DNA of 64,000 nt from Paramacrobiotus metropolitanus (taxonomy: Eukaryota; Tardigrada; Eutardigrada; Parachela; Macrobiotidae): contig NW_026570236.1 of NCBI RefSeq assembly GCF_019649055.1, forward strand, positions 62,001 to 126,000, read 5' to 3'. A program made the position numbers and the translations under genes. Under the pieces are notes generated by a model. The model worked only from the letters and a program-made list of their open reading frames with translations. It ran no database searches and was not told where the DNA came from. Below, one piece after another: positions 2,409 through 24,894 of this stretch. Position 1 is the first letter of the stretch; each line of letters opens with the position of its first letter.

Positions 2409-5400
2409 ATGGATAGCCTGAATTATTACAAATCATCTAACAACAACAATCCCCTCGAAAGCCAGCCTTCGCGGCTGTTGAATCGCGAGGAGAATGAACT
2501 GCTCTTCCAAGTTATCGGTCAGCGCTGCATCGTAAGTGGTTGTTGCGTCTGGATTAAACATCTTCAGGGTTCGTGGATTTTATATTTTCACGGGGAATGT
2601 CTTGTAGTCGCTGGCGTCAGCGGTGGTGCAGGTCCTCTTCTCCGAGCCTGGACCGGGATCAGCGCGCTGGAGAAAACGCTTTTGCGGCGTGGCCTGCTTT
2701 ATCAAGGATAATCCGAAGAAATCCTTTTTTATCCGGATTTTTGATATTGTGGTGGGTGTTTCACTATTTCTCCCGTTATTGGGGTCTTTTGGCACAATTC
2801 CAAGATTGAAATTTTGTGTTTGCAGGAGCAAAGTGTTTTATGGGAGCAAGAACTTTATCGCGAGGTAAGAATGTTGTGCTTTTCATTGTTGGTGACGGGT
2901 TATCTCGGGTGCGATTTGCCTGTTTATGTTATCAGTAAACTGTTATGGTTTGTGATTTAATTTTGGGACGCGAAACAGATTGTGTTTATTTCGCAGTTCT
3001 AGTGCATTGTCTGTTTCCATATTTCTTTTTCCCAATTTTCGTTTTTTTATATTGCTTGCACTGGCCTTGCATTGCATATCAAAAATTAATTCTTAATCCA
3101 AAAAGGGAATTATGGCGAGAAGTTTAATACTGAATCGAGATTTCAATTAGTTAGCTAATTATCTGTTAACGTAAAATTTCGAAAAGTTTTCATATGTATT
3201 CAGTATTCGTGTCGAAGTGTTTAGTGTTCTTTGTTTTCCGCTGCTTTAGTGATTAATTATGAGTATTGATAATTTGTTTTTATGGAATCAGCAAGAGTAC
3301 GGTATTATTAATTTTGAAGTGGAGTCAAGTGAGAACTGGCACGCACTGGTCATTAAAAAATAAAAACTGATATTTTATCTTCGCATGCAGCATTCGTACT
3401 GCGCGTAGTATTCCAAGCTTCGTGCGATGTTTGCGATTTCAGTTTTGCACAGCCCGATGTACCTAATTCACGCTAATTGATCTGAAAACCTATAAAAGAG
3501 TATAAGTTTGAAGTTCTCAAAAGTCAAGTGCATGCTTGGTTTTTTAGCATAAAGCATCGTTTGTGAAGAAGCTGAAACGTTGCAATCATTTCTTAATAAA
3601 AATCAGAATGTGTTATACAGAAAAAGTGGAATTATCTGCGAATGTGTTGATAAAGAATGTCCGATAATTAAATTTTGATTCATGTTTGAAGAGCGTGACC
3701 AAACTGAAATAAGTTGATTATAAAGCATGCTTGGGTAATTAAGTGGTTTACCTTTTTTTTATCGTGACATACTTAGGTTGTGCAATTTTCGAAAAGATGC
3801 GTTGATGGGAAGTTGGAACTGATGAGAACCATTTTTGATTTAATTTGACGCAACCATTAGTCATCGATCGGAAGCACTTTGTTGACCAACTCTTCAGCTC
3901 CGCTACAGTTTCCGAGTAATGTTTCACGCTATCATGTGGGATAGTACTGAGATGAATAGGGCCATAGTATTACCATCACTTATGTACTATCAAATTTTTA
4001 GTATGAAATTCATGTTATTTACTCCTGACATGTTTGTGCTGTTGACAGCTGCTGTGTCTTTTATTGGTGTAATCGGCTTTTTGCAGTGGCGTAGTGAAAG
4101 TGCTCGTAAACGAAAATACGCTGCTTAATACAAGTTTTAAGTTCTAATAAATTAATTTAGTATTACCCAGTTTAATGCACACTGAATTTTGCAGTTTTTG
4201 AAACCTCTCGCTTGTGCAGCCACTGCTGCTCTCATTTCTTGAATGGACTGTGTTTTTTTTTTAAGCAGTGTATGTTCATGAGGTTTTATGGAATATGCTT
4301 GTTAGTTGTTAGGCTTTAGAAAATAGGGTTAGACTAAAGTACCGGTATGCGGATAACTACATCTGGACTAAGGATGATTGGGTTCCCAAGTGCTTGTGTT
4401 TTATTGACAGTGAATTAGTACTAGCTAGGACTAGTCATTCTTTCAGTTCGTAGTTTATAATTGTTGATTCGATACTTCTAACGCGTCTTAGGTTTATTTA
4501 GGTACTCGGCAATTAAACTGTTATATCATGTACGGGTGTGCGCTCGGTGTAGGCAGTAAAGATGATGGCGATTTGGTAAACAAGCGGTAAACAGTGAAAG
4601 TAGCAATAAAAATCCGAATATTAACGGTGTGATTTACAGATCAATTACCATCAAGCACTGCCCTTTTTTCACACATTTGAAACGGATGACCGGCAGGCTG
4701 GTCTCAATTTCGCCAATGAGGACGAAGCATATCATTTTTTCTCCATGGTTGATGACAAGGCTCGCCTTCTGCAGAAACGCTTTGAAGGTAAGTCAATATG
4801 GCTCACCGACAGACGGCGAGAGCAATTCATATTGCTCAAATATTTGAGCAATATTATAACGACACACTGTACACTCGGTTTTAGATTAGGCGCTTTAGTA
4901 ATTGTTATACATGTTGGTCATTTGTTTGTCCGCTGCAGACAATCAACGTAAGCGGGAGGGATTGAACAACAACCATGGTCCAAAGATCGACCATAATCAC
5001 AATCATGTGCAAATCAATCGTCCTGTATCGACGGCACAGTCTGTACAAGCGCCATTTCCGGCGGGTAAGAAAAAAACATGTTCTGGCAAAGTTGTAGGAT
5101 AAGCGAGGTTTTTTGTCTTGCACTTTCAAATGTTGTTTTGGTTCGGGTAAAACCTTTCGTCTGCTGGGAGCCTCACCGGCATAGAGTGCATTCATTGTTT
5201 TGCAGCTCTCACAGCTGCTGATACTTTGTAGCATTCGAACAGTTACCATGTTGCCAAATTAATAGTCGTCTACAGTTGTTTTATTTTTATGAGCCGCAAT
5301 TTGATTTACTGAACACCGCAGATTTTTCCACCTTCTTGTTGTCTGCTTTCTGATCGATTTTGGTGTTTATTACATCCAAAATCGTTCCAAATTCTTGAAT

Positions 5401-7198
5401 CTTGACTTTTGTCTCGCCAGTAATCAGTCGCTTGTCATTCCTTTCGCAAAGTGGCGGAGTTCTACTCTGCTACTTCTTTTTTTCCTGAAGAAACTTAGCT
5501 GGTTTTTTTCATGAGTTCGATATAGATCATCCAGTTTAAGCCAATGGTGGTGCAACAGTGTTTCCGCATTGCATACAGTGTTTCTTTGTTACACAGACCG
5601 GTTCCAGCACAACAGTCAGAATAACGTCAACAACCACGACGACAAAAAGAAAAAGGGTAAATCGAAGAGGATTACCAAGCAAGACATTGGTCTGCCGACC
5701 AATTTTGTGTATGTTGCGCATCGGGTCTTTTTGAGTTAATTTTGTGTCTTATTGCGAATGTTGCTTGCAGTCACATATCACATATTGGTTGGGATCCCGA
5801 TCGGGGCTTCGATTACGATGATTCGGATCCCACACTACAAGAGTTATTCAAGAAAGCCGGCATCGATATCCGGAAAGCCGACGCGGAAACGCGTAATTTC
5901 ATCTATGGCTTTATTGAGAAGGAATTAGGAGGAGTCAATGCGGTGAAGAAGGCAGTCGTCCATCCGCCAGCCAATGCCAATAATATCCCTCCACCACCGC
6001 CCCGCTCTCAGCCTCGTGTGCCAATCACTCCGGCGGTGCCTCAGAATAACTCCGCCATTCGGCCCCTCCCGCCGCCCCGGACTCCGCCGTCGCAACCGCG
6101 ACCGGCTCCGTCCGTTCTCATGCGGGCGCAGCCTCCGCCCCCTCCTCCAGCGCAGCCACCGGCCCTCAAAGGGCAAGCACCGACACCGCGCGGACCTCCG
6201 CCGCCCCCGATGAAACCGGTCAATGGGTTCGGTGCAGCAGCACCCCCGCCTCCCCCTCCGCCGCCGCCTCCCCCACCCTCGGCAGGACCGGTGCCGCCGG
6301 CGCCACCCATGCCGGCACAACTGCAGTCTCCTAGTTCGCCGGAGACCGATGGACGCTCAGCACTGATGGACGCCATTCGCAGGGGGAAGGAGTTGAAGCC
6401 GGTGGAGTCGGCGGCACCAGCCCGCGCGTCGACGGATCGTGATAAGCTGCTCAATGAGATTGTGAACGGGATAAATTTGAAACATGTAAGAAGAAGAAGA
6501 AAAGTTTGATTCTCCTGGCAACGTTGAAGGTTGTTTTATGGGGGGAATGTGGTTGTAGGTGGATCCTGAAAAGGATTCATTAGGGAAGAATGAAGCGAGT
6601 CAGCCGTTGGATGGGATGGCGGCTGCTCTCGCCAAAGCACTGGAGCGAAGGCGAGTCGTCATGGATAATCAAGGTAACAGTTGGGAGAAGTAATAGGACG
6701 GTATCAGGATTTAGGACTGATGTGATTTGAAAACATCCCAAGTATTCGATGATTTTGTGGAATTGGGCGACAGTTGTCTGAACTGTGAAATTATTGTTTT
6801 TTGAAGTAAGATGTTGAATTTATTTTAATCGGAATCATTCGGAGAACAAAGAGGAATAAGATTATTTAGTTTACTTTAATGCCAAGTAATTTTACTTGGA
6901 AGCACTTAAATACTTCCAAGTAAAAAACTGGTGTGTTTATGGGTTTATGCTTCGATTAACATAGGGGAAAAGGAGGAAACCTTAAGTAGAAGCTCATGGC
7001 CTAATTGTAGAACATAATTCCGTTCGTAATCGTGCTTACAGGCACTTTTTGAAGATATACTGCCACTGTTATACGTATTGTGTTGTATGGTGTCCTTATG
7101 TGGCTTTCCTGTGTTAAATTGGTAAAGTATAGAATGGTTATTTTGCAGATGAAACGGAAGATGATGACGATAGTGAGAATGACGATGAATGGGATTAG
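2409..7198 (+). CDS. WAS: Wiskott-Aldrich syndrome protein homologue 1 (WASP/N-WASP)
   Basis: Actin-nucleation promoting factor that links active Cdc42 to the Arp2/3 complex at membranes. Exons: 2409-2531, 2608-2748 (or 2751), 2826-2864, 4640-4787, 4939-5064, 5597-5708, 5771-6485, 6559-6673, 7149-7198; all phases agree and give about 522 residues, normal for the family. In order: WH1 domain (~30-140; LWEQELY and LNFANEDEA motifs), basic stretch and GTPase-binding domain (~205-265; KKKGKSKRI, then HISHIGWDP), long polyproline region (~270-395), two WH2 actin-binding motifs (~424-441 GRSALMDAIRRGKELKPV; ~452-469 DRDKLLNEIVNGINLKHV), connector helix (LAKALERRRVVMDN) and an acidic tail ending DDEWD, whose Trp contacts Arp2/3. 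Two WH2 motifs is the N-WASP arrangement. The start ATG is followed at once by coding sequence of the right phase. Introns reach ~1.8 kb; the third contains a nested gene. Confidence 0.95.
3919..4128 (+). CDS. Small single-pass membrane protein nested in a WASP intron
   Basis: An open frame of 69 residues lies wholly inside WASP intron 3, on the same strand. Residues ~35-56 (DMFVLLTAAVSFIGVIGFLQW) form a convincing membrane segment, followed by a short basic tail (RSESARKRKYAA), the topology of tail-basic small integral membrane proteins. Three in-frame ATGs (3919, ~3952, ~4003) are possible; the last would give a 41-residue protein. A canonical AATAAA sits 18 bases after the stop, which supports an independent transcript. 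I do not recognise the family. It has no usable splice phase with the WASP exons, so it is not a cassette exon. Could also be fortuitous. Confidence 0.5.
   Translation: MFHAIMWDSTEMNRAIVLPSLMYYQIFSMKFMLFTPDMFVLLTAAVSFIGVIGFLQWRSESARKRKYAA
4146..4151 (+). promoter_or_regulatory. Polyadenylation signal of the nested small gene
   Basis: AATAAA 18 bases after the stop codon at 4128, within WASP intron 3. Confidence 0.45.
6890..6925. repeat. Hairpin-forming inverted repeat in the last WASP intron
   Basis: A 13-bp arm (ttttacttggaag, 6890-6902) and its exact reverse complement (6913-6925) are separated by 10 bases. Function unknown. Confidence 0.7.
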
Positions 7199-8341
7199 AG
7201 GAAACTCTGTAACTCTTGACGGAAGGGGAATTGTTATGTTGCCAACCTGTGATCGGGTTATTTTAATTTACGCGCGGTGCTTTCGTGGAGGTCCATTGAG
7301 TCGACTTCGACGTGCAGTCTGGGATGTTTGCCGCCCAGTGCCTTAAATGTTTTGCTTACTTCTGCAGAGGCTTTAATATTTTCGTTTAAACTTAGCAGTT
7401 TTTGTTATTTAACCGTGAGAAATGGTGAGAAATGAACATTTTTTGATTTCATGTGGAGCAATTTTGTGGATGCGCGGTCCATGAATCTCGCCTTCGGACT
7501 TGGGAATCTGTTTAATGTTTCAGACTTTCATATGGTGAATCCTTCAGTGACTGGGAATCTGAATGTTGAACGTAATATGTTGGAGAATTGTTTGAAGTTT
7601 TAAATAAAAGCTTTTTTTGTTCTTAAGTCGCGTAAATTTCCATGCAACATATAAAAAAAACTAATAAAAGCGACAGTAGTTAAGCCATTGAAACTAAGTA
7701 GGCAATGCAGAATCGCAGATAGTAATAAATTTGCGACAATATTCTGGATGCGGCAGAGTTAGTTGCGCTCACAAGTCAGATATGTATCTCGCTTTCAACT
7801 TCCGGACGAGCAAAGCCAGTAGAGTCAGCCCTTTAATTTTCAGAGTTTGAGTGCTAGTCGGCGGACTGATTTCTTTAAGGTATCAGATTTTTAGTGTACG
7901 ATAAGATTTTTGTGCGAAAGGAAATTCTCATGGGTGCGTGAATGACGTTAACAAGATATTCTACACTAAGTGGTGATTCATGCAGTTAATCATCCCTTGG
8001 AATTACTTGAAATTAGATCAGCTGGAGATTAATGAAGCACTCGCTAGAAGTGGAGCACACTTTGCAATGCGATATTTGTTTGTGCGGAATTTGAATTTCA
8101 GCGGCGTGTGGTGGATGTGATAGCATGCATTACGTATACTATCCTTCCATTTATTAATATCGTGAAATACGCAGTACGTGTATCTCGTTAAATTTATCGG
8201 TGTTCACAGTTTCCGATTTGTCAACCGCTTCGTTACCGGAACTTTTTTTGCAAAAGTTTATGAAAAGATATACTGACACTAAAATTATTTATTTTGTGTG
8301 ACACCAAGTCGTCGATTGCTTTAATCTGATTTGCATCGTGA
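7199..8341. other. WASP 1 3' UTR and spacer to the dual-CRIB gene
   Basis: Contains the probable WASP 3' UTR to about 7.6 kb, then sequence without recognised coding potential. The two neighbouring genes are co-oriented and 1.1 kb apart. Confidence 0.45.
7603..7608 (+). promoter_or_regulatory. Polyadenylation signal of WASP 1
   Basis: AATAAA about 400 bases after the WASP stop codon at 7198; it is the best-placed signal before the next gene. Confidence 0.5.
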
Positions 8342-9870
8342 ATGGCGCCGCTGGCATCCAGACTGAGACGAAGTCTTTCCGTGGGAGCAGCCGACGATGA
8401 ACAACCTATATTCAGGCGACGGAATATCCAAAACAATATCTCTATTCCCATTCGGGGAAGTTTTCGGTGTGTAATCCATAATAATATGTCGGTCGACGTT
8501 AAAAGTGTATCCGATTTTTTTATGGTGAAATAATTACTTATAATATGCGAGTCGGCATTAAATTCATATATAACATGTCTCGTTATGATTTTCACTGATA
8601 CAGCAAGTGTATGCGTAGCAGTACAAAATAAAGAGAGCATGCACATACTTTTATATACATGTTTTATATACGGAAGATATTTTAATATAAATTCATAAAA
8701 TCTGCATGGTTTTTTAATCTTGTTCAATCCTTTGTACGAGCAGTCATCGAGCCCACATCGGATGGCAGCCGGAACATGGCTTCGTGACCACAAACGACGC
8801 GGACGATTCGGATTTGAACGCGTTTCTTAATGATGCTTTGGACGTTATCAAAGGTCAGAGCATCACTTATGAGTTGCGGACAATAAATTATTATTTATGA
8901 AGCTCCGTTATGCGGTGGAACGTTTCTCTTCTATTAATACGTACTTGTATCAGGAGGCATGCAGTGTCTCGATGCACAGCCGGATCAACTACCGACAGTC
9001 ATCGTAACCGCAGAAAAAAACCGGCAACCAGCCGAAAGTGGCACGCACTCCGTCCAGAATGGTTCGTTCACTCTGCCGAACCAGAAATGCGACCAGAAAA
9101 ATACAAAACAGAAGCGATTCTCGGATTTCTCCTTTCTCAAGCGATTCAGCCTAAGTATGAAAGTTAATGTTTTTAATTATGCGGAAGCTTTAAATCAGTT
9201 AACGTTATGTCTGACAACTGCATCGTCTCACCAATATAACACGGCTTTAAGCGGCTTGCAGTTCTATTCATTTTATTATAATTATCTAATTCCAAACTGC
9301 AACGTACATAAGCATGTACTCGTAGAACATAAAGCCTGCATAAATAAAGCGTACTCGTACAACTGTATCCTAATGCTAAATCTTGATTAACTAACATACG
9401 CAAGATAGTTTAATCCTCACAAATACTCATGATAGTTTTGTAAGCTTTTAATTAAGCATAATACGTTAGATTATTTTCTTAAACTGCAATATTTATTTAC
9501 GCTCTCCAAAAACATTGTGTGTGAAGGCCGATCGACATCACCGAATCCCGACAGTACCCCTGTCACTCCCAGTCCTGATGCCACGACGCCGACGAAACGG
9601 AAAAGCCGGAATATTTTCCGCAGTCTGTCCGATGCAGCGCTGTTTGCAGTAGGCTCAGGAAAACGCAAATCAGAGGAAATTGCTAGTGAACCACAAATGG
9701 AAATCAGTAGTCCAATCCCTGGTTCTTTCAAGTGAGGCATTTATTTTCGAATTTCGCGGATTCTGACTGTATGTGATCCGTAATTGTTTCGGTTGTGTTT
9801 ATCGTTTAGGCATGTACAGCATGTTGGATTTGGCGAAGGACTGCGGATGGCCACTGCGGCCGAGCGGTGA
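8342..9870 (+). CDS. Small protein with two CRIB (Cdc42/Rac-binding) motifs
   Basis: Predicted effector or sink for Cdc42/Rac-type GTPases. Exons 8342-8466, 8744-8853, 8954-9154, 9527-9731, 9810-9870 join in phase to 233 residues. The first CRIB, residues ~34-52 (ISIPIRGSF then HRAHIGW), continues as QPEHGF..DDSDLNAFL, resembling the WASP GTPase-binding domain, including the Trp after HIG. The second, at ~207-222 (ISSPIPGSF then HVQHVGFG), fits the CRIB consensus ISxP..F.H..HVG exactly and sits 11 residues from the C-terminus. Between them are basic, Ser-rich stretches (KQKRFSDFSFLKRFSLS; TKRKSRNIFRSLSD) that could bind membranes or be phosphorylated. There is no WH1, polyproline, WH2 or kinase domain. 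It lies 1.1 kb downstream of WASP 1 on the same strand. I know no named family with this layout; Cdc42EP and SPEC proteins have a single CRIB. Motifs are certain; function is inferred. Confidence 0.8.
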
Positions 9871-11299
9871 TGTGCATTTCCACACACAAGTTACTTCCTT
9901 ACTTGATTACTGCAATTCAGTCGGATGGATGTCAAAATTAATTATAAAAATCCAAGCAACTACTACTCTGATAACAAACAGTTCTAAACAAGCATTATTA
10001 GTTAGCGTTATTATCGTGATTACGGCATTGATTAGCGTTTGTTCTGCTTTCTGAGAATCTTAAAATATGTTGCTCCGAAATGGGCGGCATATCTGTTTGA
10101 GAACAGTTGTTTCATAAATTGCATTAATTTACTCTACTGGATTTGTAAAGGTACGGTAATGGATGCTAACATTGTATTGTTAATCTTTTGATAACGAAGA
10201 AACCCGCCGCTCAGTTTTTATTGGTTATATGAAGCACTATATTAAAGACGAACACCGCCTTGCGCCTTGCATCGCTGATGGAATTTCAGCTTATGGATTT
10301 AAAATGGTAGCATGCTGAAGTTGACAAGATCACAATTAGTAGACTATAGCTAAATAAATTATATACAGCAGTATATACAGCAGTATATGCAATTAATAAA
10401 CTATATGTAACAGCAGTAAAGGTCAGAAATCATGCAAAATGAAGATGCAACAGCTAATGCTGACTGGTAAAGTGAGAAACTGGTAATTTGACAACCCCTC
10501 GTACTTAAGTTACCGGTATCTAATGTCTTAAATGCATTTAATATAATCACAAAAGTTTGATGGAGGAAGGAAACTCACAACTGCAGATACGTACACTGTG
10601 CAACTTTGATCAAACTTGATAAACTTTTTCATGTTTCCTTTTGCCATTTTGTGTACTAAGTATGATTTGACCAATAAAAAAGAAAAAAACTTATTAACAA
10701 ATGTTTGGTTACCGCCAGCGGAATGCAATTAAAGCGGATTGGACCGGGCATATTCTGTAGTCTGTTCGTAGCTGGCTGTTCAAAGCGATAAAATAATATT
10801 TGTCTCGGTATTTCTCACGGTCAGTGCGCAACATTGAAATTGAAAAAATCTTAAATATGTTTACTATAAAAAAATTAATAGTTGATAAAGGTGCCGGTGA
10901 TTGTGGACGTTTATCTCGACTGTTCGTAAATTTAACTCGTAACACGTGGTTTTGCGGCTATACTAACTGTACTCGTACACTGCACTACGTTCTGCCTGCA
11001 CAACAAGCGGTACATTAACATACCAGTACGGTTTTGAAACCCTTGCGAGTAATACTGGACCGACTTATCACTTGCGAGTACGCTGTACGCGTTTTTCAAA
11101 CTTTATGATTTTGCCATTTTCCGTTTTATGCTACACTCTACAGGCCGTTTTTTTATTAGTGCAGCAGTTAGTTTTAAAATTGTAAGTTATTTACTGTTCT
11201 AAGATTCTGATCTGGATTAAGATTGAGGCCTTTAGGTTAGCCTTCGATGAAAATTGACTGGGAAAGTGACTACCTGTACACTTTTGAAGGTTGGGAAAA
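9871..11299. other. Intergenic
   Basis: No gene recognised. A short tandem of agtatatacagc-like units lies near 10366-10395 and one TACTCGTA word at 10970. The promoter of the TPP2 gene presumably lies in the right half. Confidence 0.45.
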
Positions 11300-14200
11300 A
11301 TGTCTATTGGCGACGGAACATCTTATCCGTTCTTGGGTCTGATACCCAAACGCGAAACCGGAGTGTACGATTTCCTTCGTAAACATCCTACATTCGATGG
11401 CCGAGGTTGGTTGATTGTGAAGCAAAATCTACAAATTCACTGCCTTACACCTTTCTGCGCGTGACAGGTATCAAAATGTGCATTATGGACAGTGGCGTCG
11501 ATCCTGGCGCGGAGGGCTTACAGGTGCGCTAATACCCACCCATCCTGGTATTTTCTTCTGCAGAATCGTAACTTACTGTAGGTAACCACCACGGGGCAAC
11601 CCAAGGTGATCGATATCCTCGATGCTTCGGGCGCGGGGGACATCGATACGTCTACCGTCGTGGAAGCGGACGCGGAGGGGTTCCTGACGGGTCTCACGGG
11701 ACGAAAGCTGCATTTGAACAGGAACTGGCACGCGGAAGATGGGAAATTCCATCTGGGAGTGGTGCGGCTGTTCAGTGTGGTGAGTGAGGATTATCATGAT
11801 GCGTGGAAGAAGGCGCGGAAGATGGAGAAGTGGATGCCGAGGCATGCTGAAGTTGTTTCTGTGGCCATGCAGCGAGTGGCAGCAGCGCCTGCCAGTGATG
11901 TAAGCAGAATTTGCCTCGTTGGTTTTACTTATATTAATTTACCTAAGAAATACATGTATGCGCCACTACTGTAATAATTAATTATTGAATTTATAGCGAG
12001 CGTAATTATTGTGTATTCGAGGTAAACATGGAAATGGCATTGTTTAGTGGATTTAAAATTCTAATTTTACTTAATCAATTTATGTAAAATTATTTTGGTA
12101 GTTATTTTATGCTAATACGGTGGCAAGTATCTGTATTTGCTGTACGCATAAGAAAATTTTATAAGAACGTAGCTGTGGAGATCGTCTTTATGGGTTGTCT
12201 TTCTTGTGAAAAGTCATGATGGCCTTCGTGGCTTTGGTTGAGTGTTACTTATAGGTGATCGTAGTTCAGTGCCTCTGTGTACCGCTGATCACATTTCTAA
12301 ACATCTGTAGGTGCAATTTTAAAATCATTTTGTAGACTTGTAGTATGATACTCCTTTTTGGATTTTGGTATTTTTGTTGGCTTATTGATTGTGTTTCATT
12401 TGTAGTGCGACTAAGCGAAGTATTTGAAAATTCGTAAGATTATTGTGCATTTACTGTGTGTTTGTAAGTTATTCTGCGGTAGGCTCAGACAAAAGAAGAA
12501 TTGGACGCCCAACTGGAAGTGGCCAAACTGTTGGATGACAAGTATGAGGACTTGGGACCTGTGATGGATATTGTTGTCTTTCATGACGGGAAGATATGGT
12601 GGGCGGCTCTGGATACGTCGGAAACGGGTGATTTGACCAATGCGGCTTTGTTAACGGATTATCGGGACCAGTTCAAATACGGAACTATTGGTATGTGTTC
12701 GTAAGTTGACAGGAGTTTTCGTTATCGGATGTACGACCACTTTTTTGTTTGTGTATTTTAGCAACAAAACTAATATTATACGAGTAGTTATTGTAGCTAA
12801 TGCACCGATATAAGTGCCCGTTGCAATGCTTTCACAGTGTAGAGTGATGGCATGGTCGGGGCCACTATACGTACCATTTTGTCCCATGTTATTTAACAAC
12901 AGAATAACGCAAAAATTGGTGCTCCGTTTTCTTGATTACTCAGTAAGTGCAGTAGTACTATTTTGACCTGACGCCTAGTTTTCGGTGTTGGTGTTTCTAC
13001 GAGTTGCTGTAGTGATCATTTGCGGTGGTGCCAACTGCCGAGTGAAATGTGAAATCTAGCACTTTTCGTACCGGCTAAGGGCTAACGGATCTGCACTGTA
13101 CGGTCCACTACTCGCAGTTGTTATTTGCTAAGACTCTGGCGGTGTTTTTTCATTCGGTTGGTTGTCAATTTCTGTAGGAGGAATATACCAGATTAATTAT
13201 ACTCTCAACATCTTGGATGATGGAAACCGAGTGGAATTGGTCATTCCACAAGAGCACGGTACCCATGTGGCCTCCATTGCGGCGGCCCATTTTCCTAACA
13301 CCCCGGAAAGGAACGGCATGGCGCCTGGATGCCAGATCGTCTCCATTAAAATTGGCCACACTTTACTGGATGGAAGCAATGAAACGGGGACATCTTTAGT
13401 GCGGGCATTCTTGTACTGCATGAAGAACGGTGTCGATATTGTCAACATCAGCTACAGTAAGTGTTACCGTAGATTTTGTGAAGAGTTAACAAAATAAATA
13501 ATCATTCACCTACAACAGATGAGCCTTATAACTGGAGTGATGGTGGTCGCGTCTTCGAAGCTATCGAAATGGCCGTAAAACAGTACGGGATGATTGTCTG
13601 CGTGGCCAACGGTAATGCCGGGCCGGGTCTGACTACCGTGGGATCTCTGCCAGCTTCTCCGTATACGTTTGGAATCGGAGCCTATGTGACACCGGACATG
13701 ATGAAAGAGTTGTACGGTTTAACCCACAAACATCCCGCTTTGATGTACAACTGGACCAGTCGCGGTCCGACACTGAACGGACATCTGGGAGCGTGCGTGT
13801 GTGCACCGGGTGGAGCCGTGGCGTCCATACCGACATACACATTAAAGAACAGCAGTTTGTTTAACGGAACGTCCATGGCGTCGCCCAATGCGTGCGGCAG
13901 TCTGGCGGTGGTGTTGTCGGGACTGCGAGCACGACAGATTCCCTGGAGTGCGTTTCATGTGCGACGCGGCATGGAGTTCACCGCGAAGAAGCTGGATCAG
14001 ACGGCGGACTCACGGCTGGCGCATGGATATGGGGTGGTGCAAGTGCAGGAGACGTTCGAGTGGTTGTGCAAGTGGGCGAAGGAACCGGAACGAGATGTGG
14101 ACATTCAGTAAGCCTGGTCGACATACCTATCAGCGGTAATGGCATGTGGCGTTTTTAATATTGTGGTCGTGTAGGGTTTCGGTTGAACATGGATCTGGAA

Positions 14201-17200
14201 TTTATATTCGGCATCCAAATCAGCTCGGTGATTGCATTTGTACAGTTGGCGTTGATCTGACGTACCCAAGAAAACTGGAGCATTATGCGGAAGCTGCGAA
14301 ATTATGCTTAAATGTGGCACTGTCAACGACGGCCGACTGGGTGCGAAGTGCGGAATTTGTTACGATATCTACCGGAAAAAAGGTTAGTGTTTACGATTGA
14401 CGCAATAAGTTTGTCTAAAATTAGGTGAGGTTTGTATGGAACTTGAGTACTAGTACGTATACGGAGTATTAACTGGGCAGTTCCTCTCTAAGATCAGTAA
14501 TAGGTATCGTAGTAAGGGGGCTAAAGTGGATACAAGGCAATTTCCACGTTATTAAGGTGTAGCCCTACAGTGGCATGGTAAATTGTTATTTTGAACCTAT
14601 AATTGTCGAAATATTTTTAGCAGCGATTTTTTTGGCAGGTATTTTTTAGTTTATCGATTCATGCATACTACGTAATTGTAATCTACGTACATGTAACCCC
14701 GTTATCCGTTTCGAAAACCAGCTAACTTGTAACTCTTGACAATTTTTGTGATGCAGACATTTAAAGCAGAAGTGAAGACTTCTCATTTGGCTCCTGGACT
14801 GCACACCGCCAGTATTCTTGGTCACGATGCGAGATATTTCGATAAGGGTCCTGTATTTGTTGTTCCCGTGACCGTCTGTATACCAGAATTCAAGAACGAA
14901 TGGGCCATCCAAAAGAACGGCATGGTGTTCAAACCAGGACATCCTTTGCGCACCTTCATTCAAGTTCCGCCTGGAGCAACCTGGGCCGAATGGAGGCTGC
15001 AGTTGGTAGACTACCACGATTCAGCCCCCTGTCCGATGGATGCTAGTCCGATCCTGAATTTCGAATACCACGCCATGCAACTATCTCAGAATGCGCAGTA
15101 CAAAACCCACATGTTCCGTGAAACGACCGCGTTTCCACTGCGCCGGGTGGTTTCGGTGGTGTTTCCGGTGTCGGATCGCCTGGGTTTTCTGGAACTGGCC
15201 GTCGCGTTGTTCTGGAATAGGATATCCTCGGTCGTTATGGACTGGTCGTTGGATTTTCATGGATTGAAACCGAGTGTGCCGGAGATTGTGTATCAAGAAG
15301 GAGAAGCGTACTATCGGGTGGATGTGGATGCCGGTGGCCGAAGCGAGTTTTTACAGCCGTCAGTTTCGGTATGAGTTGTGTATTCCAGCTGCATCTGCAG
15401 TAATCTGCCGTCCAGTTACATATGGCTTTGAATGGTTATCGTAGTGCAGCGGTTTTATTGCATATCTTCATCTCCAGTTGAATGGATTTACTAATTTTCG
15501 CGAACAGGTTGCAGAGTTAACTGTTCACTAAGTTTGCTTAGCTCACGACTAGCATTTTTTCAGAACGTACTGCAGAAATGGCCGTATTAAAACTTTCGGT
15601 AGCTTAAATCCGTAATTTTAATTTCTCAAAGCCGTAATTTTAATTTCTTATTTGCAGTTAACGCACTTAGTGCAGCCGATTCGCCCGAATGAATTTTCCA
15701 TATCACCCTTATCCTCTCGCGATACGTGGCCGGATGGCCGCATCACCTATCAGCTGATCCTGCAGTACCAGTTCAGCATGACTAAAACCGCCACAGTGGA
15801 AGTGACGTGTCCGATGGTGATGGACTTCCTGTATGAGAATGAGATTGAAGGGCAAATGTGGAAGCTATACGATGCTAATAAACGAATGCTCCGGTGTGGG
15901 GAAGCGAGAGTCATGCGGAAGATTGATTTTACGGCTAAACTAAACAAAGGTGGTTTTCGTTGGTAGTATTTTTAGTCGGGCGCTGTTTTATTGTTAGTAA
16001 TTTTTGTTACATTGTTGCAGGTGATTTTGTCGTGTACGTACAACTGCGACATGATAACCGAAAGATTCTGGAAAGGTTTCAAGATATGGTGGTCCATTTG
16101 AGAAAGAAACTCACTCCTCCTCCTATTACTTTTGATATCGTGCCCACATATCTAGCCGCTTTGCGTGGCGGGGATGAGAAGTTTAAATCATGTATTTTGT
16201 CGCGTAAGTAAATATAAATACAATGTTACAATTTCTGTTTTAATATGAAATACAACGCTATTTTAATCTTTTCAGCCCATCAGTCCCAGTTTTTCTTTCT
16301 AATGCCTCCTAGTAGTGACAAACTGGGGAAAAGTGTGCATGGATCTTATTTTGTGGATGGTTGCTTGTACTTTGCTGTCTCGAGAGATCAACCAGCTGAT
16401 GCCAAACGGAATGCTGGAGCATTTCCGTTGAAGTTTATTCTGGCTGAACCGGGTAAAGGCAAGGCGGGAGGTAGTAAGGCTGGATCGAAGGAGGGTAACA
16501 AGGATTTGGATGATCCGGTTCTCGCTCATCAGGTCAGATTTGGTGATAGGTACTTTGTAATTTTCATGGATATGTCTTATTGGTGTTTTCGTTTTGCAGT
16601 TCATCTGTGTATCAGTTGATTGATGGTTTTGTACGATTTCTGTTTTCAGGTGGCCTTTTTCGATAAAATTTCGGATTTGGGAAAGAAGGCCGAGTTGTAC
16701 GAAAGTTTCTTATCCGATAACAAGAGCCCGATACAGCAGCTCAAAGTTCACCATACTTACCTGCTGTCATTGGCAAAAGCTCTCGATAACAAGAAACAAG
16801 CGGAATCGGCCAGTCTAGAAAAATTGGCTTCCGCCATGACAACTACCTGTGATGCAATAATTGCCGCTGTTGATGAGAAAGAGCTGCTAGCTCAGTTAGG
16901 TAAAGACGGTGAAGTAGAAAGTTAAAAAAATAAGGGTTTACTAGAAATAATTTGGCGTCCATTGCCACTAGATTGTTTTCTGTAAAAATACTACGAGCAT
17001 TGCCATTTTAATTACGTATTTATGCCCGCATTCGAACATTATTGTTGATGAGAGCATTCGCCGAGGGAGTGTTTTCGCCCATACACTACGTTGCAGTCTA
17101 CAATTAGCAGAATCGCTTTTTTTGCACGAGTCGTACAGTACGTATTTATTGGTGACTTCAGGTGCCCAACCGGAATCCGTCGAAGAAGAAGTCCGGCCCA

Positions 17201-17559
17201 GTGTGGATTTGCAAAAGTCCGCGCTGACAGACGCTTTATATCACAAATGCATGCAGCTGAACCGGAATATGGAAGATAAACAGGATCCCGTAGCTGAAGC
17301 TCTCGGTCTTCGCCTGCGGAAATTTCTCGACCCCAAAACGGATGCCCGATATGCGGAGATGATGGGATTTCGTAGCAATAAACTGGGATTACATGGGAGA
17401 GCACTGAAATTTTCAATACAAGCGTTGGAAGATAAACCGACTCTGAAGGGATACAAGGAGGCAGCGGAATTGGCTGATAAACTGAACTGGCCACATGTTA
17501 GAGATTATTTACTGGAAAAATTACCGGTGTTATTTCCGAACAAATATGACTTGTTTTAA
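11300..17559 (+). CDS. TPP2: Tripeptidyl-peptidase II
   Basis: Giant cytosolic subtilisin-type exopeptidase that removes N-terminal tripeptides from proteasome products. Thirteen exons: 11300-11405, 11468-11523, 11582-11899, 12483-12690, 13178-13456, 13519-14107, 14175-14382, 14757-15368, 15658-15949, 16021-16203, 16276-16532, 16650-16899, 17162-17559. All phases agree and give 1251 residues, against about 1249 in human. The triad is intact: Asp43 (IMDSGVDPGA), His256 (EHGTHVAS) and Ser441 (FNGTSMASP), with oxyanion Asn355 (ANGNAGP). The ~200-residue insert between Asp and His that marks TPP2 is present. The C-terminal half matches the family throughout (for example GATWAEW and the final helical repeats ending PNKYDLF). 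The start ATG matches the family N-terminus (PFLGLIPKRETG). No oddities; the gene looks functional. Confidence 0.96.
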
Positions 17560-18435
17560 ATTTGTTATTTAATGAATTTTCTGATTTCTTTGGTTTGCGG
17601 TAACTGGTTTTTTTATGGCGGTATTTTTATTGTTATTGTGACTGCAGCAGGCACTTGCCTGTACGTTGCAGTTTCTGTGTTGGAAATTACAACTGCAGGC
17701 ATATTATTGTTGAAGTAATTTTTTAAGCAATAACGATGTGATCATTTGGCTAATAAGTTGAAAAGCCTTGAAGACACACAGTGTGTCCAAAACTTTATTT
17801 TTCGCGAATTTTCAATGACAGCGCTGCACAGATCACTCAGTACGATGTACAGTAAATCATGTAAGTGTACGATGTTATTCCAGGTGTTGTCCAGAAAAAT
17901 ATGTGGAAGTACGCACGTAATGCCGGTAATAATGGCAACTCACTTTCGAGCTACAGGTAGTTTAATATGGATTATGCCATTATGGAACATCGGCAACGAA
18001 AAAGCAGTCGTGAGAACTGTGTTGCCTTTGCTTTTACAGTACATTAGCTGTGGAAATGATTGCCCCATCTCTTTTTTGTACGTACAGTACATATATTGTA
18101 CTTGGCACCTGCTAGTGTAGGGCGTATTATTAGTTATATTGTTTTACTACTGTGACCGCTCACCGCGATAATTATCCCACAAAGACGGGGTTAAATACGT
18201 ACCTACAATGCCAAAACGCTGATCACTGGATTTTTAATTTATTATTTGGTGAGCACGTTATGAAAGATGCAATCTTAGTAACAGCAGAGCGTAAGCTCAT
18301 TGTAATGACTTTGGTAACAGCAAACAAAAGCAGAACTGGCAATTGGTTTTCTTAGTGCTGCACATTTCCGTTGCCCTAGTCGTAATTTCAAGAGATCAGA
18401 TAAGTAATTCTATTAGGTCTAACAATAATATTGCA
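17560..18435. other. Intergenic between convergent genes
   Basis: Lies between the 3' ends of TPP2 (+) and the SAM/zinc-finger gene (-). I see no gene; the short open frames lack codon or domain support. Confidence 0.5.
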
Positions 18436-20443
18436 TTATTCTTCTTTTATCTTTCCGCATCGATGCATTTTGGCATAAAAACGATTAACTTTTCTCCCGC
18501 ACATTTGGCATCCCACAAAGCGATCATTATAATGTTCGTGATATTGCAGAATATGGCACTGCAACGTGTACTTAGTAGTATAGTTTTTAGGACACTGATC
18601 GCAAAAGAAACGCCGTTTCTGGGTTTCGATGGGCATCGACTGCGGAATTTTATCCATTTTTTTAGATTTTGTGCGGAGGGGAGGCACGAGATCGATGGAT
18701 GCCATGGCAGCATCGCGAATTTCTGCCTAAGAGCAGTGAGCAGTCACCTGAAAAAGAGATTAGCGTACCTCACGAGTATTTTGAAAATCAACATTTTACC
18801 TGAGAGTCAATCATCATCTTCAGTTTATTCACGGCGTCTGTGGTGCCACTGACTACGATGACCACACTGTCATCTTTCCAATCCATGGTGAAGCCGGCTT
18901 TAATGGCAGATTCAGCAGTATAACAAACGCAAAACCCCGACACTCTGGTTTTAGAAATGACGGTTGGGAGATCCAGCTGAGCGAGTACTTTAATGTCCAC
19001 TTGCGCCGTCCCAGTTACGAAGTCAAGGTGGCATTCACCCTGAAAAAAAAGCAGCAAACATCATAGTTCGCAAAAAGACAAGTACTTACATTTGTTAGTT
19101 ACAAGCATTAAACCAACAAGGTGACAATATTAAAGAAGTCAATTTTGAAGTAAAGGACAAAAACTTGGTAGTTAATTTCAAAGAAAGTCTGCGGGAAAAG
19201 ACTTAAGGGATTTGGCCCGGTACATAGCGCTAAAACCGTGTACATTGACGGGAATATTCGCTTTCGCGCACTTTCAAACACTTTTTTGGGTTACTTTTTG
19301 ACATTGTGTAACCAAATGATTGGTGTACATAGGCGTGAAATCCGTTTTCGCGCGCAACATCCGGTTGCGGAGTTATGAGGGTAACAAAATTCCAAAAAGT
19401 TTAAATGCATTCAGGAGTACCAAAAGTCTCATTATGGACCGTTCCCTTTCGAACTTTGCACGTAAATGCACATAACCATGAAGATCGTTTTGACACGGAT
19501 CCACTGTTCTAGCATGTTTTTCAAATTTTAAAATGAATTTCAAAAAATTTAAAATTCATTTAAAATTTGAAAAAAATCGTAGAAGTCTGGATCCGTGTCA
19601 AAACGATCTTTATGGTTATGTGCATTTACTGTACGCGCAAAATTTGAAAGGGGTCGGTCCATAAAGAAACTTTTGATACACCTGAATGCATTTAAACTTT
19701 TTGGAATTATGATACCCTCATAACTTCGCAACCGGATGTTGCGCGCAAACGGTTTTCTCACCTAGTTATACAATTCTTCTGGCTACAAAATATCATAAAG
19801 CAATGCAAAAAAGTGTTTGGGAGCGCGCAACAGCGAAAGTCCCCCTGGTGCTATGTACCGGGCCAAATCCCTTAAGGTAAAAAGAATTAAGAATGCCAAG
19901 GCGTGTCGGCTTTATAGTTCATGCTTTAAGTATTGTGTCGGCTTTCTACTTCTACTTCATACTGATGTTGCATTATAGTAAAAAATTACAAATCGTTTGT
20001 TATATGCGCGTAGGGTGTATTTACAGCATTATAATATGGTAATAACATAATACAGAAATAAGTAATAAGTACTTACTATTATAGTAGCGACGTTCTTTAA
20101 ATTTTATTATACATATTTAGTTTTGGAAACGTCCGGAAAAAAATCGGGATTACCGGTAAAGGTGATCCTGCGGGAATTGAGTCAACTGACGTGGACAAGG
20201 CAGCGCGTTTCGGAGCGCAGCGTTCGCCATTGTGGCGCTTCGCCGCCTGAAGGATGGCTATCTGATCGCCGATGGTACTAATGCCCATATCGATGAGGTA
20301 GCCTTTGTCGAGATTTTTAAGCATGGAACAGTTGATGCGCTCACTGATGAAAATGCCAGCGTACTCCGATGCTGCATGCTCTGGAATGCCACTGTCCAGA
20401 AAGAAATTCTTCCACTCTGTTAGTCGAGCATCTCCGGACGAAA
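18436..20443 (-). CDS. SAM-domain plus C2H2 zinc-finger protein (5' end not found)
   Basis: Three exons are supported on the minus strand: 20443-20154, 19039-18800 and 18726-18436; phases agree. The first encodes a SAM domain (LTEWKNFFLDSGIP..., ...ISTIGDQIAILQAAKR) closely resembling, from memory, the SAM domain of the vertebrate C19orf47 family. The middle 80 residues are unfamiliar (ends VVIVVSGTTDAVNKLKMMI). The last exon has a classical C2H2 finger (CDQCP...CHILQYH) and a C2HC-like knuckle (CQMCG...MHRC), then stops. SAM domains oligomerise and zinc fingers bind nucleic acid or protein, so a nuclear role is plausible but inferred. The SAM exon begins in phase 1, so a short upstream exon with the start codon is missing. 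A TTAA-flanked element occupies the long intron. Two adjacent genes read as one cannot be fully excluded. Confidence 0.65.
19203..19875. mobile_element. TTAA-flanked foldback element (piggyBac-like MITE)
   Basis: The element is 19207-19871 (665 bp), flanked on both sides by TTAA (19203-19206, 19872-19875), the target duplication of piggyBac-type transposons. The outer 22 bases (gggatttggcccggtacata onwards) are perfectly inverted at the two ends. Similarity between the arms continues inward for roughly 300 bp with interruptions, for example caaccggatgttgcgcgc and ggatccgtgtcaaaacgatc, ending in an AT-rich palindromic centre near 19545. The whole element could fold into one long hairpin. No transposase is encoded. 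It sits in an intron of the SAM/zinc-finger gene. Confidence 0.85.
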
Positions 20444-21922
20444 CTAAAAATTGGGGAAATAAAACATTCACTATCAGTATCAGTGACTATCTACCGGTAA
20501 ATAACACGAGAAAAGCTCAGCAATATTACGAGCAGCATTTTTCCAGAGTCAGCATCAGTGCCACATTCCGTAGCACCCCGCTACGCAGGCGCTCAACAAA
20601 AAAATCGTTAATGGCTTAGCTAAATCTTGAAACATTCTATAAGAGGATAAGGATCAAAATTTTTGAATTGGCTTTTAACCAACTTTCATAGAAGTATAGA
20701 TTGTATGCATGCTTGCGTTACGTACTAGTACTTTTGGCACGGGCGCTGTTAGGAGTTTTGGCCGTTTTGGCATTTCCCCTTAACAACCTGCTCATAGTTC
20801 TTTATGATCACGAAGACACCGAAAGATCCAAGCTTTCAATAAAGTGAATGGGGGTTTATAAGTTTTGCGAGCAAATTACCAGAGGATTCGAGCAAGGTAT
20901 GCACTATGCAGCGAACCACCTTCAATACGTACGTAATAAACATGGCGAGCCGCGAGCCCAACAAAAAGAACCACTCACAGTGCCTCACCTTAACAATAAC
21001 GAATAACGACTCCAATAATCTTACAGTAAGATTCTTACTCAATTAATATTAATCGAACCAAGACTCCAATTAATCGAACCAAGACGATCTAATTAACAAA
21101 AAAAATTGCGCGGAATGTTGTTCCATAAGTTTTTAAAAATTCGTTGCGCGCTAACAAATTAATTGTAAGTATCACACATGCTAAAATAAGTTGAGCACGT
21201 GCACGTCTCCGCAAAACACAATAGTTACTTACTTCCGGGGACTCATTAAAATAGTTTTTAAAACTGCCATGCGGTGGAGGGTGCCTTAGCTACTAGAAAA
21301 ATTTGTTGGTGTTGTTCCCAACTTCCCAACAACTTGCTATTTGAAATCACTTGTTGAATGAACATACGTAGATCTGTTGTCCTAACATCTAAAGCTTTTT
21401 GTTTCAAGGGTTTTATTTATTATGATTTCTTGAGATATGAACCATATGGTAATAGGTAAATGGTTTTTTATGACGACAATTTTGTTTTTGATTGTAAAGT
21501 AGGACAGGGCGGCTTTCTGATCAATAATTGGTATTTGGTAATAATTCAATTTCCAATATGGTACATTAGACATTTACGTTTACATTTAAATGGCACATAG
21601 CAGTGGTATTAAAATGAAGCAAAATTGATTGCTCAGCTTATTAGTTTCATTGCGCGTTGATGTAGAGCACTCGTTAGGTTACACCAAAGCACTTAAGGAA
21701 ACTCACAATCCTAATTTTTCCAATTTTTTCAACAAATTTATTATTCACTCAACGAAACAATCTAATCAAAAGTGACACAATAAATTTAAAACCACTCTAT
21801 ATATCCGTGTAAGCAATCATTAAATTTTTCTTCAGAACAAGCAAGCGGACGGCTTTATAACATGGCTTCGATATGGCTTGCACGTCAGCAATAAACCTTT
21901 TCAATTAATGTGCCTCAAAGGA
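20444..21922. other. Spacer between SAM/zinc-finger gene and WASP 2
   Basis: AT-rich sequence. It must contain the missing first exon of the SAM gene and the 3' UTR of WASP 2 (a minus-strand AATAAA lies near 21738). Nothing else recognised. Confidence 0.45.
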
Positions 21923-24894
21923 TCAGCATTCCCATTCTTCGTCATCCGAATAGTCCGATTCGTCTTCTACAAATACAAAAGTTCGCTTAGTTGAAGTAAA
22001 TATACGACAAAAGCATTGTAGCACAATACTCTGGTTGATAAAATTTGTGTTTGTACTGGTAATGCAATATCGCAACTGTACAACGGCATACAGAAGATGT
22101 AAGTACGCATTTTTATTGCGCTGTTCATGAGGAAACAGGCATCAGTGCAAGACAACGAAAAAATTTCAGCCAAAACCTTAAAGCAGTACTTACCATCATG
22201 TTCTTGCTGCATGGCCCTCCGTCGATTGTCCATTGCCAGTTGCAGAGCCGCTGCCATACCTCCTTGTTCCAGAGTCGGTGTCCTGGGTGCCTTTTCCTCC
22301 GGAGTGACCTTTACATACCATAAGATAAATACTTAAATCTTGCATCGATCTATCAGATACCAAAAAAGCATATCTAGTTTGCATATGCGATTTTGATTTC
22401 CTTAATAACAATGCGAATGGTTATAAATGTTCAAAGCAATGGAACGAAAAATACAGGAATAAGACATTTTGTGTAGGAATAACACATTTTTTGCTACAAT
22501 CAATACAGCACGAACGATGCAGTGGTCACACCGCCTCACACGTACCTTTCGTAACGTTTGACCTTTCGCCGCGTTTCGGATACTATGCATCAACTGGTCA
22601 TGGGCGCCTCCCGGTCCCGGATCGGAGTTCTCCCTGTTCACCGGCTTCAGCGCAAAATTCCCTCCGCGAATGTCGGCCAGAAACGCTCGTCCTCCACTCT
22701 CCCCGCTACCGGTTGACCGGAAACTGTCGCCGCGTAGCAAATGGTCCGGTGGCGGCGGCAGATCCAAACCAGGCGCTGGTGGAGGCGGCGGAATAAATCC
22801 ACCCGGTGGCAGAGGCGGAGGTGGGGCGGGGCAAAACCCGGAGGTGGTGGAAGGCCGAAGCCTGGGGGCGGGGGCGGCGGGGGTGGAGCCCCTGGTTTAG
22901 CCTGAGCGAACGGCGGAGGTGGTGGCGGTGGACCGGTGGGCATCGTGTCGCGGTGTGCGGGAATGCTGATGTCTAATGCGGATCCCGTGCGGCGGGGCGG
23001 TGGCGGTGGTCCGATGGTGTGAATGTTGGGATGTTGGCGTGAATATTCGGAACTATCGGAGCGTGGGCGCGCATTGTCCGGTGGGAGGAGTAATGTCGGA
23101 GGCGGCCGTTTGGGCGGTGCCGAGACGCCGGTAATTTTCGGAGCGGCTGCCGCGGGCGGACGTGGCGGTGTCGGGTGCGCGAATTCCGCTTCGATGGCTT
23201 TGCGACCACCTAGATTTTCGATTGTCTGATACAGGAACTGTTCGGTTTCTTTGTCCATCTGTGACACGTTGATGCCGGCGCTGGATAGTAACTGCGCCAC
23301 CATGGGGTCATTCATGTCGTAGTCCAAGCGGCCTTTCTCGGCATCCCATCCGCAATGTGCCACGTGTCTACAACGGATCCGTTGTCGTAGAATGTCTTAA
23401 TCGCAATAAGTACATGCACATTTACTGAAAAGTTTCCACGAGAGGCCGACCGATATCAGCCGCCGTCAATTTTGTTGACTTTTTCGACTGTAGTTTGTCC
23501 TTTTTCCCAGAAAATAGTCCCGTCACATTGGAGAGAAAGGTTCCATCTGCAACAAGAGGTCAACGGCAAAATGAGCAAAAATATTAAACCTGTATTTTCA
23601 TAAAATTTGTTTTAGTAATAAACTTTTAAAAACATTATATCGACGTAGCTTGTTATGTTCTAAAGATAAAAAAATTTTGACCTGTTCAGAAATAATTTGT
23701 GTAATCCAAAGTTTTGCTGACACTTTACAACAATGTTTTACGTGCCATGAACAGTGTGACATGTTAGTGTGACACTAACATCAGTAAAATATAAAGCTTA
23801 AGTTATACTATATGAATAAGATATTTCGCAATATGCTTTTATTAGTCGATTTTAAAAAAATGCTGCTTACTGGCATTCTGCTTTTCCGCTCCGACTGGAA
23901 CGGGCTGTGCAGCGGTGGACACGCCCTGGGCAGCGGAGAGTTTGAAAGCGGCATTGTCGGACACCACTGGGGCGGCGACCGTGGTCTGAGTGGGAATGCC
24001 GGGCGCCGGACGTGTTGATTTCGTCCGCATTCCGTTGTCTCTTGATAAGCCTGTCAATTGTGAAAACAATCAATAGGAAAGTAAGAAAACTAATGTTTTT
24101 AGAACCACGTTGGCAGTCTGTAAGACGTAAGCATAGTCGGCAGAGCCTTCCTAGAGTTCCTACATTGATGTAAAGTATGTTAGTACAAAGTAGGCAAGAA
24201 TTTACAAAATTAATCATAAATCATAAGAATTTGTATATCAGCCAGGAAAAAAGTTTTTAAATCAGGACAATATAGGTTAAGAAATTTTATATGATACCAT
24301 TTTCTCCTGCCGCACGTCGCGATTGCTTAACCGGTTTCCGTCGTTGTATTAAAGTTTTATTGGAGACTTTATCGTAAAAGTCGTTGGCTTCCGCTGCATC
24401 GGCGAAGTTTAATCCGGCCATGCAGTTGTCCGCTTCGAACGTATGGAAGACGTTTTGCCGATTGCGGTAATCCAGTTCAATGTAAATTTCTTGTTGCCAT
24501 AAAAGCTGGAAATTCTATTATTGCAAGCAGACGAATTAATTCACATTTTCAACTGCACAGTGTAATATTATTCTGCCATACCTGAATGTCGTAGACATGG
24601 ATAAAGAATGTCTGCAGTTGGTGGTGTTTAATAAAACACGCCGCACCACAACCGACCTTTCTCCAATAATCATGATTCGGCGGATCGGTAATCAACAATT
24701 GAACCACAGCAGTGGATAAACTCTGAAGAAGAAAATCATAATTTCGACTTTTCCATTAACAGGACAGCTCCAGTATTCCAAAATGGATCACACTGTACCT
24801 CGCATTGGGGCGGAAGCATTCCAATGACGGCATCATTCTCATAGTCAGTCAGAAGATTCGATCGCCGACTCTTCTCCGTTAGGGAGGTAACCAT
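21923..24894 (-). CDS. Second, divergent WASP homologue (apparent -1 frameshift in polyproline exon)
   Basis: Paralogue of the WASP at 2.4 kb, in opposite orientation. Exons: 24894-24799, 24722-24582, 24505-24298, 24050-23871, 23546-23426, 23367-22546, 22308-22194, 21966-21923. The encoded order is WH1 (STAVVQLL, LLWQQEIY, AGLNFADAAEA), GTPase-binding domain (DIGRPLVETF then HVAHCGWDAEKG), polyproline, a WH2 motif (GRAFLADIRGGNFALKPV), connector (AAALQLAMDNRRRAM) and an acidic tail with conserved Trp (DDEEWEC). The large exon is 822 nt; one more base is needed both to leave its GFAP frame for the LPPGGFIPPPP frame near 22830 and to satisfy the phase of the next exon. With that base the protein is about 575 residues. 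The change lies among GC homopolymers, so an assembly error is likelier than a pseudogene. Cys replaces Val/Ile in the CRIB (HCG). Confidence 0.88.

What the first reader, a model, noticed from the sequence alone, without database searches (positions are those of the whole stretch)
5597..23546. Four CRIB motifs in three neighbouring genes are split by an intron at the identical codon and phase
In WASP 1 (5708/5771), WASP 2 (23426/23367) and both CRIBs of the small gene (8466/8744 and 9731/9810), the exon ends two bases into the codon just before the first conserved His (gt|t, ca|a, cg|t, aa|g), and the next exon opens with the H..H.G motif. Same site and same phase in four modules within 18 kb strongly suggests one ancestral module copied locally.
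Basis: partly seen in the sequence, partly recalled or inferred. Interest (0 to 1): 0.8.

Follow-up and report, generated by a model that had tools for sequence, protein, structure and literature searches.

The report
Old WASP-type intron inside CRIB motifs
Four GTPase-binding motifs in three neighbouring animal genes really are cut by an intron at the same spot, but the human WAS gene has that intron too and so does a gene elsewhere in this genome, so it is mostly an inherited feature and not a sign of recent local copying.

Summary
In WASP 1 (5708/5771), WASP 2 (23426/23367) and both CRIBs of the small gene (8466/8744, 9731/9810), a phase-2 intron ends one base before the first conserved CRIB His. 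No other GT/AG pair within 40 bases of the sites keeps the motif (4 of 4).

Local copying is not the best reading. (1) Human WAS splice variants (c.734+2, c.735-1) and c.735del = K245Nfs place a human intron in the same codon and phase, before the same His, so both WASP genes inherited it. (2) A fifth module with the same junction lies on another contig, C21. (3) Small-gene CRIB1 scores highest against that distant module (81), then WASP1 (73) and human WASP (70).

The site is not general to CRIB genes: 0 of 6 other CRIB genes found here have it; PAK1 is cut 9 nt downstream.

What remains unusual is a predicted 233-residue protein with two CRIBs and no other recognised domain, perhaps a bivalent Cdc42/Rac adaptor or sink built from a WASP-type CRIB. 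The tree cannot prove that origin.

The parts
2409..7198 (+). WASP 1 gene, 9 exons (2409-2531, 2608-2751, 2826-2864, 4640-4787, 4939-5064, 5597-5708, 5771-6485, 6559-6673, 7149-7198), 523 aa with WH1, CRIB/GBD, proline-rich region, WH2 and acidic end
   Evidence: open joined frame with GT/AG sites; Pfam WH1, PBD, WH2 above cut-off; 208 bits to N-WASP in the PDB
5709..5770 (+). 62-base phase-2 intron in the WASP 1 CRIB (NFV|HISHIGW)
8342..9870 (+). small gene, 5 exons (8342-8466, 8744-8853, 8954-9154, 9527-9731, 9810-9870), predicted 233 aa with two CRIB motifs (ISIPIRGSFRHRAHIGW; ISSPIPGSFKHVQHVGF)
   Evidence: open joined frame; PBD 35.1 bits, two stretches; exon GC 0.52 against intron GC 0.32, frame 0 best by a codon score trained on WASP 1 alone
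8467..8743 (+). 277-base phase-2 intron in CRIB 1 of the small gene
9732..9809 (+). 78-base phase-2 intron in CRIB 2 of the small gene
21923..24894 (-). WASP 2 gene, 8 exons (24894-24799, 24722-24582, 24514-24298, 24050-23871, 23546-23426, 23367-22546, 22308-22194, 21966-21923); the assembled proline-rich exon carries a one-base frame slip
   Evidence: WH1/GBD 133 bits to N-WASP in the PDB; WH2 in the downstream frame
23368..23425 (-). 58-base phase-2 intron in the WASP 2 CRIB (TFQ|HVAHCGW)

Best explanation
The shared intron is an old intron of the WASP gene, placed one base before the first CRIB His, already present in the common ancestor of this organism and humans. Both WASP genes in the window inherited it when one ancestral WASP gene was duplicated. 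The two CRIBs of the small gene, and a CRIB gene on contig C21, carry WASP-type CRIB modules with the same intron, most simply because they descend from a WASP-like split CRIB exon pair and not from the neighbouring WASP genes recently. Shown: the junctions, the human match, the fifth copy, and the lack of the site in the six other CRIB genes found. Inferred: that the small gene's CRIBs came from WASP, and that its protein works as a bivalent binder of GTP-loaded Cdc42/Rac which, having no VCA or kinase part, bridges or titrates the GTPase instead of activating Arp2/3.
For: Human WAS splice variants c.734+2T>C and c.735-1G>A, with c.735del = K245Nfs, put the human intron after base 2 of codon 245. 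Human WASP reads ...GFKHVSHVGWD, so the next codon is the first CRIB His. Human introns implied by variants at c.132/133, c.274, c.734/735, c.1338 and c.1453 have phases 0,0,2,0,1, as WASP1 introns 1, 2, 6, 7 and 8 do. WASP2: 5 of 7 introns share order and phase with WASP1; the last two lie after the frame slip. The C21 module has the same junction on another contig. Small CRIB1 local scores: C21 81, WASP1 73, human WASP 70, N-WASP 61, small CRIB2 58, WASP2 56, then PAK1 42 and less. In the PDB the small-gene matches at E<0.1 are 3, all WASP, out of 8 matches listed up to E 10. 0 of 6 other CRIB genes found share the site.
Against: The modules are too short for a tree: 0 of 9 inner branches well supported. 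From the first His onward, small CRIB1 is nearer to local WASP1 (68) than to human WASP (62) or C21 (47). The P-x4-F spacing of small CRIB1 and CRIB2 and of C21 is shared with local WASP2 but not with WASP1 or human WASP/N-WASP (P-x2-F). C21's own next-best partners are WASP2 (66) and the unsplit Cdc42EP-like CRIB (59), ahead of human WASP (54) and WASP1 (52); small CRIB2's next-best after small CRIB1 and C21 is PAK1 (46), not a WASP (43 or less). The exon-by-exon family search missed small CRIB2, so it finds unsplit CRIBs more easily than split ones and the '0 of 6' is biased that way. Only this one genome was examined besides the human WAS variants.
Confidence: 0.66

Rival explanations
1. 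One reading: a WASP CRIB exon pair was copied locally within this 18 kb to make the small gene, and then duplicated inside it.
For: Neighbouring position on one contig; from the first His on, small CRIB1 scores highest with WASP1 (68 against 62 for human WASP); small CRIB1, CRIB2 and local WASP2 share the P-x4-F spacing; the two small-gene CRIBs share ISxPIxGSF.
Against: The WASP copies inherited the site. Over the whole motif the best partner of small CRIB1 is on contig C21, and C21 has the same junction and spacing, so at least one copy is not local.
Confidence: 0.16
2. The site is an ancestral intron of the CRIB motif in general, kept in WASP, the small gene and C21 and lost in PAK, ACK, MRCK, SPEC and Cdc42EP-like genes.
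For: It explains the presence in genes without other WASP domains and on another contig; C21's CRIB also resembles the Cdc42EP-like one (59).
Against: 0 of 6 other CRIB genes found here have it, and PAK1 is cut at another place in the motif.
Confidence: 0.14
3. Independent intron gains at one favoured site.
For: PAK1 has its own phase-2 intron one base before the second His, 9 nt away, so introns do land here separately.
Against: The five junctions show no common flanking bases (tgt|tcac, tcg|tcat, caa|gcat, tca|acac, cca|gcat), and repeated exact hits on one of about 48 sites are unlikely.
Confidence: 0.04

Closest known systems
WASP / N-WASP genes (human WAS)
   Same: CRIB intron in the same codon and phase; WH1, CRIB, WH2 and acidic end in WASP1
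   Different: two genes here in inverted order about 15 kb apart; human WAS has further introns at c.777 and c.931 where WASP1 has one uninterrupted exon
Small CRIB-only effectors (SPEC/CDC42SE, Cdc42EP/Borg; family traits recalled)
   Same: short protein with CRIB and no catalytic domain found
   Different: two CRIBs, both split by the WASP-type intron; the SPEC-like and Cdc42EP-like genes of this genome, named by recalled resemblance, are unsplit there
Proteins with two CRIBs: Dictyostelium gnrC product; Coronin7
   Same: two CRIB motifs in one protein (passage of PMC8847673; start of the abstract of PMC4585930)
   Different: those are a gelsolin homologue and a WD-repeat protein; the small gene has no other Pfam domain above cut-off
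ACK/Mig6 GTPase_binding (PF09027)
   Same: small gene scores 27.2 against a cut-off of 23, over residues 31-53 only
   Different: PBD scores higher (35.1); this genome's ACK-like CRIB reads through the WASP site without a break

Membership tests
WASP (WASP 1) | WH1 + CRIB + WH2 + acidic end | tested here: met
   WH1 105.7, PBD 43.1, WH2 36.6 bits; ends DDDDSENDDEWD
WASP (WASP 2) | WH1 + CRIB + WH2 + acidic end in one frame | tested here: inconclusive
   all parts present but the assembled proline-rich exon slips frame by one base
WASP (small gene) | WH1 and VCA/WH2 domains | tested here: not met
   only PBD and GTPase_binding above cut-off
CRIB effector (small gene) | I-S-x-P-x(2,4)-F-x-H-x-x-H-[IV]-G (consensus recalled) | tested here: met
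   both motifs fit; PBD 35.1 against cut-off 21.3
CRIB effector (small gene) | binds GTP-loaded Cdc42/Rac | not testable with these tools
   needs a binding assay
Cdc42EP/Borg (small gene, C21 gene) | Borg homology domains beyond the CRIB (recalled) | not tested
   only the CRIB was compared; C21 scores 59 with the Cdc42EP-like CRIB

The most novel reading that the evidence does not exclude
The small gene and the C21 gene belong to a lineage-specific group of CRIB-only proteins made by exon shuffling of WASP's split CRIB exon pair, and the small gene's product is a two-CRIB competitor of the neighbouring WASPs for Cdc42.
Probability: 0.25. Interest if true: 0.5.

Novelty: new variant of a known kind. 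Interest (0 to 1): 0.3.

Why it matters
The intron marks WASP-type CRIB modules apart from the other CRIBs found in this genome, so it could serve as a character for tracing how CRIB motifs moved between genes, which the roughly 16-residue motif itself cannot resolve. The two-CRIB small protein is a testable candidate for an actin-pathway decoy. The WASP part of the finding is ordinary inheritance.

Tried and rejected
Tree of 12 of the 13 CRIB modules compared (ACK left out, its 5' half not located): 0 of 9 inner branches well supported, so no ancestry claim rests on it. In one search the modules differ in length, and ACK, PAK4 and MRCK were short or partial, which lowers their scores.

Split-CRIB pattern over the whole genome: 36 matches against 83 for the reversed control. 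4 are known split modules (WASP1, both small-gene CRIBs, C21), 1 is inside the unsplit MRCK-like motif, and the other 31 were fetched with 721-base context. 5 of these 31 show some P-x(2,4)-F before a GT upstream, none with the I-[SG]-x-P of a CRIB, and none was judged a CRIB (by eye). The pattern cannot see WASP2, which has HCG, so other variants could be missed.

Papers: no paper on CRIB intron positions turned up in the searches (listings only). The H246D search was empty. For a PAK3 splice variant, 48 papers held 2 of 3 terms and none of the 10 listed held the variant (passages of PMC10017488), so the human PAK site is left out. Passages of PMC3298513 (12 of 19 places shown) treat WASP-family duplications; none shown concerns this intron. 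A tardigrade plus Wiskott-Aldrich search gave 2 unrelated papers.

Whole-genome searches with the small protein and with the C21 module each found only their own locus, so they did not even link the two, and kinship beyond the CRIB is unproven. Seven further WH1 loci of the 10 contigs outside C16 were read for WASP copies with a CRIB: no split CRIB in the 4.1-5.1 kb fetched; the WH1 matches on C10, C15 and C5 were not fetched.

Full report
Observation. I rebuilt three genes from the DNA. WASP 1 runs on the plus strand (2409-7198, 9 exons), the small gene on the plus strand (8342-9870, 5 exons), and WASP 2 on the minus strand (24894-21923, 8 exons). To exclude a choice made by eye, I listed all GT/AG pairs within 40 bases of the claimed sites. 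Each module has exactly one pair that encodes the CRIB pattern, and the junction lies one base before the first His codon (4 of 4 window modules). The organism was not identified by any search; that it is an animal is inferred from its gene content.

The fifth copy. A scan of the whole assembly with the Pfam PBD model gave 10 matches: WASP1, WASP2, small CRIB1, PAK1-like (two exons), PAK4-, Cdc42EP-, MRCK- and SPEC-like exons, and one on contig C21. The last turned out to be the 3' half of a CRIB. Its 5' half lies upstream in ...TADKISLPQKGSFQ, and the junction is again CA|G CAT, phase 2. So the split module is not confined to the window. The scan did not list small CRIB2, whose halves are both short, so it finds unsplit CRIBs more easily than split ones. 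A scan for the split form itself listed three of the four window modules, C21 and no further CRIB that I could recognise.

Other CRIB genes. Named by recalled resemblance, the genome also holds PAK1-, PAK4-, MRCK-, SPEC-, Cdc42EP- and ACK-like CRIBs. The SPEC-like one scores 20.7 bits, just under the 21.3 cut-off. In all six the F-x-H stretch is read without a break. Four show the whole F-x-H-x-x-H unsplit (PAK4, MRCK, SPEC, Cdc42EP-like). The ACK-like one seems to begin an exon a little upstream, at LRHSFVHTGH after a TAG; its 5' half was not located. PAK1 has a phase-2 intron 9 nt downstream of the WASP site, one base before the second His. Thus 0 of 6 share the site.

Human comparison. A clinical paper lists human WAS splice variants at c.734+2 and c.735-1, and c.735del as K245Nfs (PMC9304939, passages only). 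Codon 245 is therefore split 2|1. PDB sequences of human WASP read GFKHVSHVGWD, so the codon after K245 is the first CRIB His. The human intron is the same intron. Other variants imply human introns at c.132, c.274, c.1338 and c.1453; with c.734/735 their phases are 0,0,2,0,1, in the same order as WASP1 introns 1, 2, 6, 7 and 8. I checked only the CRIB position by alignment. Human c.360 (phase 0) and c.559 (phase 1) could pair with WASP1 introns 3 and 5, untested; c.777 and c.931 have no counterpart in WASP1. The human list comes from patients' variants and need not be complete.

Small gene. Its 233-residue product has two CRIBs (PBD 35.1 bits, two stretches) and a weaker overlapping GTPase_binding match (27.2, cut-off 23), and no other Pfam family above cut-off. 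Exon GC is 0.52 against 0.32 in introns, and the model's own frame scores best for codon usage (trained on WASP1 alone), so it looks like a gene, though no transcript was seen. Small CRIB1 aligns best with C21 (81), WASP1 (73), human WASP (70), N-WASP (61), small CRIB2 (58) and WASP2 (56), and worse with the other six (42 or less). In the PDB the 3 matches at E below 0.1 are WASP (8 listed up to E 10, 2 of them unrelated to CRIB).

Results against my reading. From the first His on, small CRIB1 orders WASP1 68, human WASP 62, N-WASP 53, C21 47, WASP2 42, a slight lean towards the local WASP1. The P-x4-F spacing of the small-gene CRIBs and C21 is shared with local WASP2 and not with human WASP or N-WASP. 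C21 itself scores next with WASP2 (66) and the unsplit Cdc42EP-like CRIB (59), and small CRIB2 scores next with PAK1 (46). A tree could not decide (0 of 9 inner branches well supported). On re-checking I lowered the best reading from 0.68 to 0.66 for these facts.

Reading. The WASP part is well supported as inheritance of an old intron. For the small gene, a WASP-type origin of the CRIBs is the simplest account of both the sequence and the intron, but time and place of copying are open, and the distant C21 module argues against a purely local event. Mechanism (inferred): two CRIBs on a short, otherwise domain-free protein would bind two GTP-loaded Cdc42/Rac molecules, acting as a bridge or a sink that competes with WASP. 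Two-CRIB proteins are known in Dictyostelium (PMC8847673, one passage) and in Coronin7 (PMC4585930, start of abstract), with other domains.

Noticed in passing
window about 22839-22800 (minus strand): WASP 2's proline-rich exon, as assembled, slips frame by one base: CRIB side and WH2/acidic side are open in different frames. Assembly error or recent mutation; both sides look conserved.
   Followed up: partly
G000:C206:39807-40538 (L049, minus strand): A WH1 stretch resembling WASP 2's first exons (MPSPLQEKSRRSRLLSDLEND...), without a split CRIB in the 4.1 kb fetched: a partial WASP 2-like copy elsewhere.
   Followed up: partly
window 986-1692: Inverted repeat with 167-base arms, 96% complementary, 373 bases between, like a foldback or non-autonomous transposable element.
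   Followed up: no
window 19250-19844: Nested inverted repeats (arms of 118, 104 and 82 bases), apparently in an intron of the minus-strand gene that lies between a TPP2-like gene and WASP 2 (gene name recalled, no model built).
   Followed up: no
G000:C30:62651-62439 (minus strand): PAK1-like gene has its own phase-2 intron one base before the second CRIB His, 9 nt from the WASP site.
   Followed up: partly
G000 WH1 matches on 11 contigs: 20 WH1 exon matches on 11 contigs, several reading as repeated Ena-like WH1 fragments (name recalled): a possible expansion of WH1 fragments in this genome.
   Followed up: no
G000:C21, L011 about 3600-5480: Kinase-like stretches (GRGAFGTVYKA..., HGDIKPDNIFV...) lie on the same strand upstream of the C21 CRIB exons; whether they belong to the same gene was not tested.
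   Followed up: no
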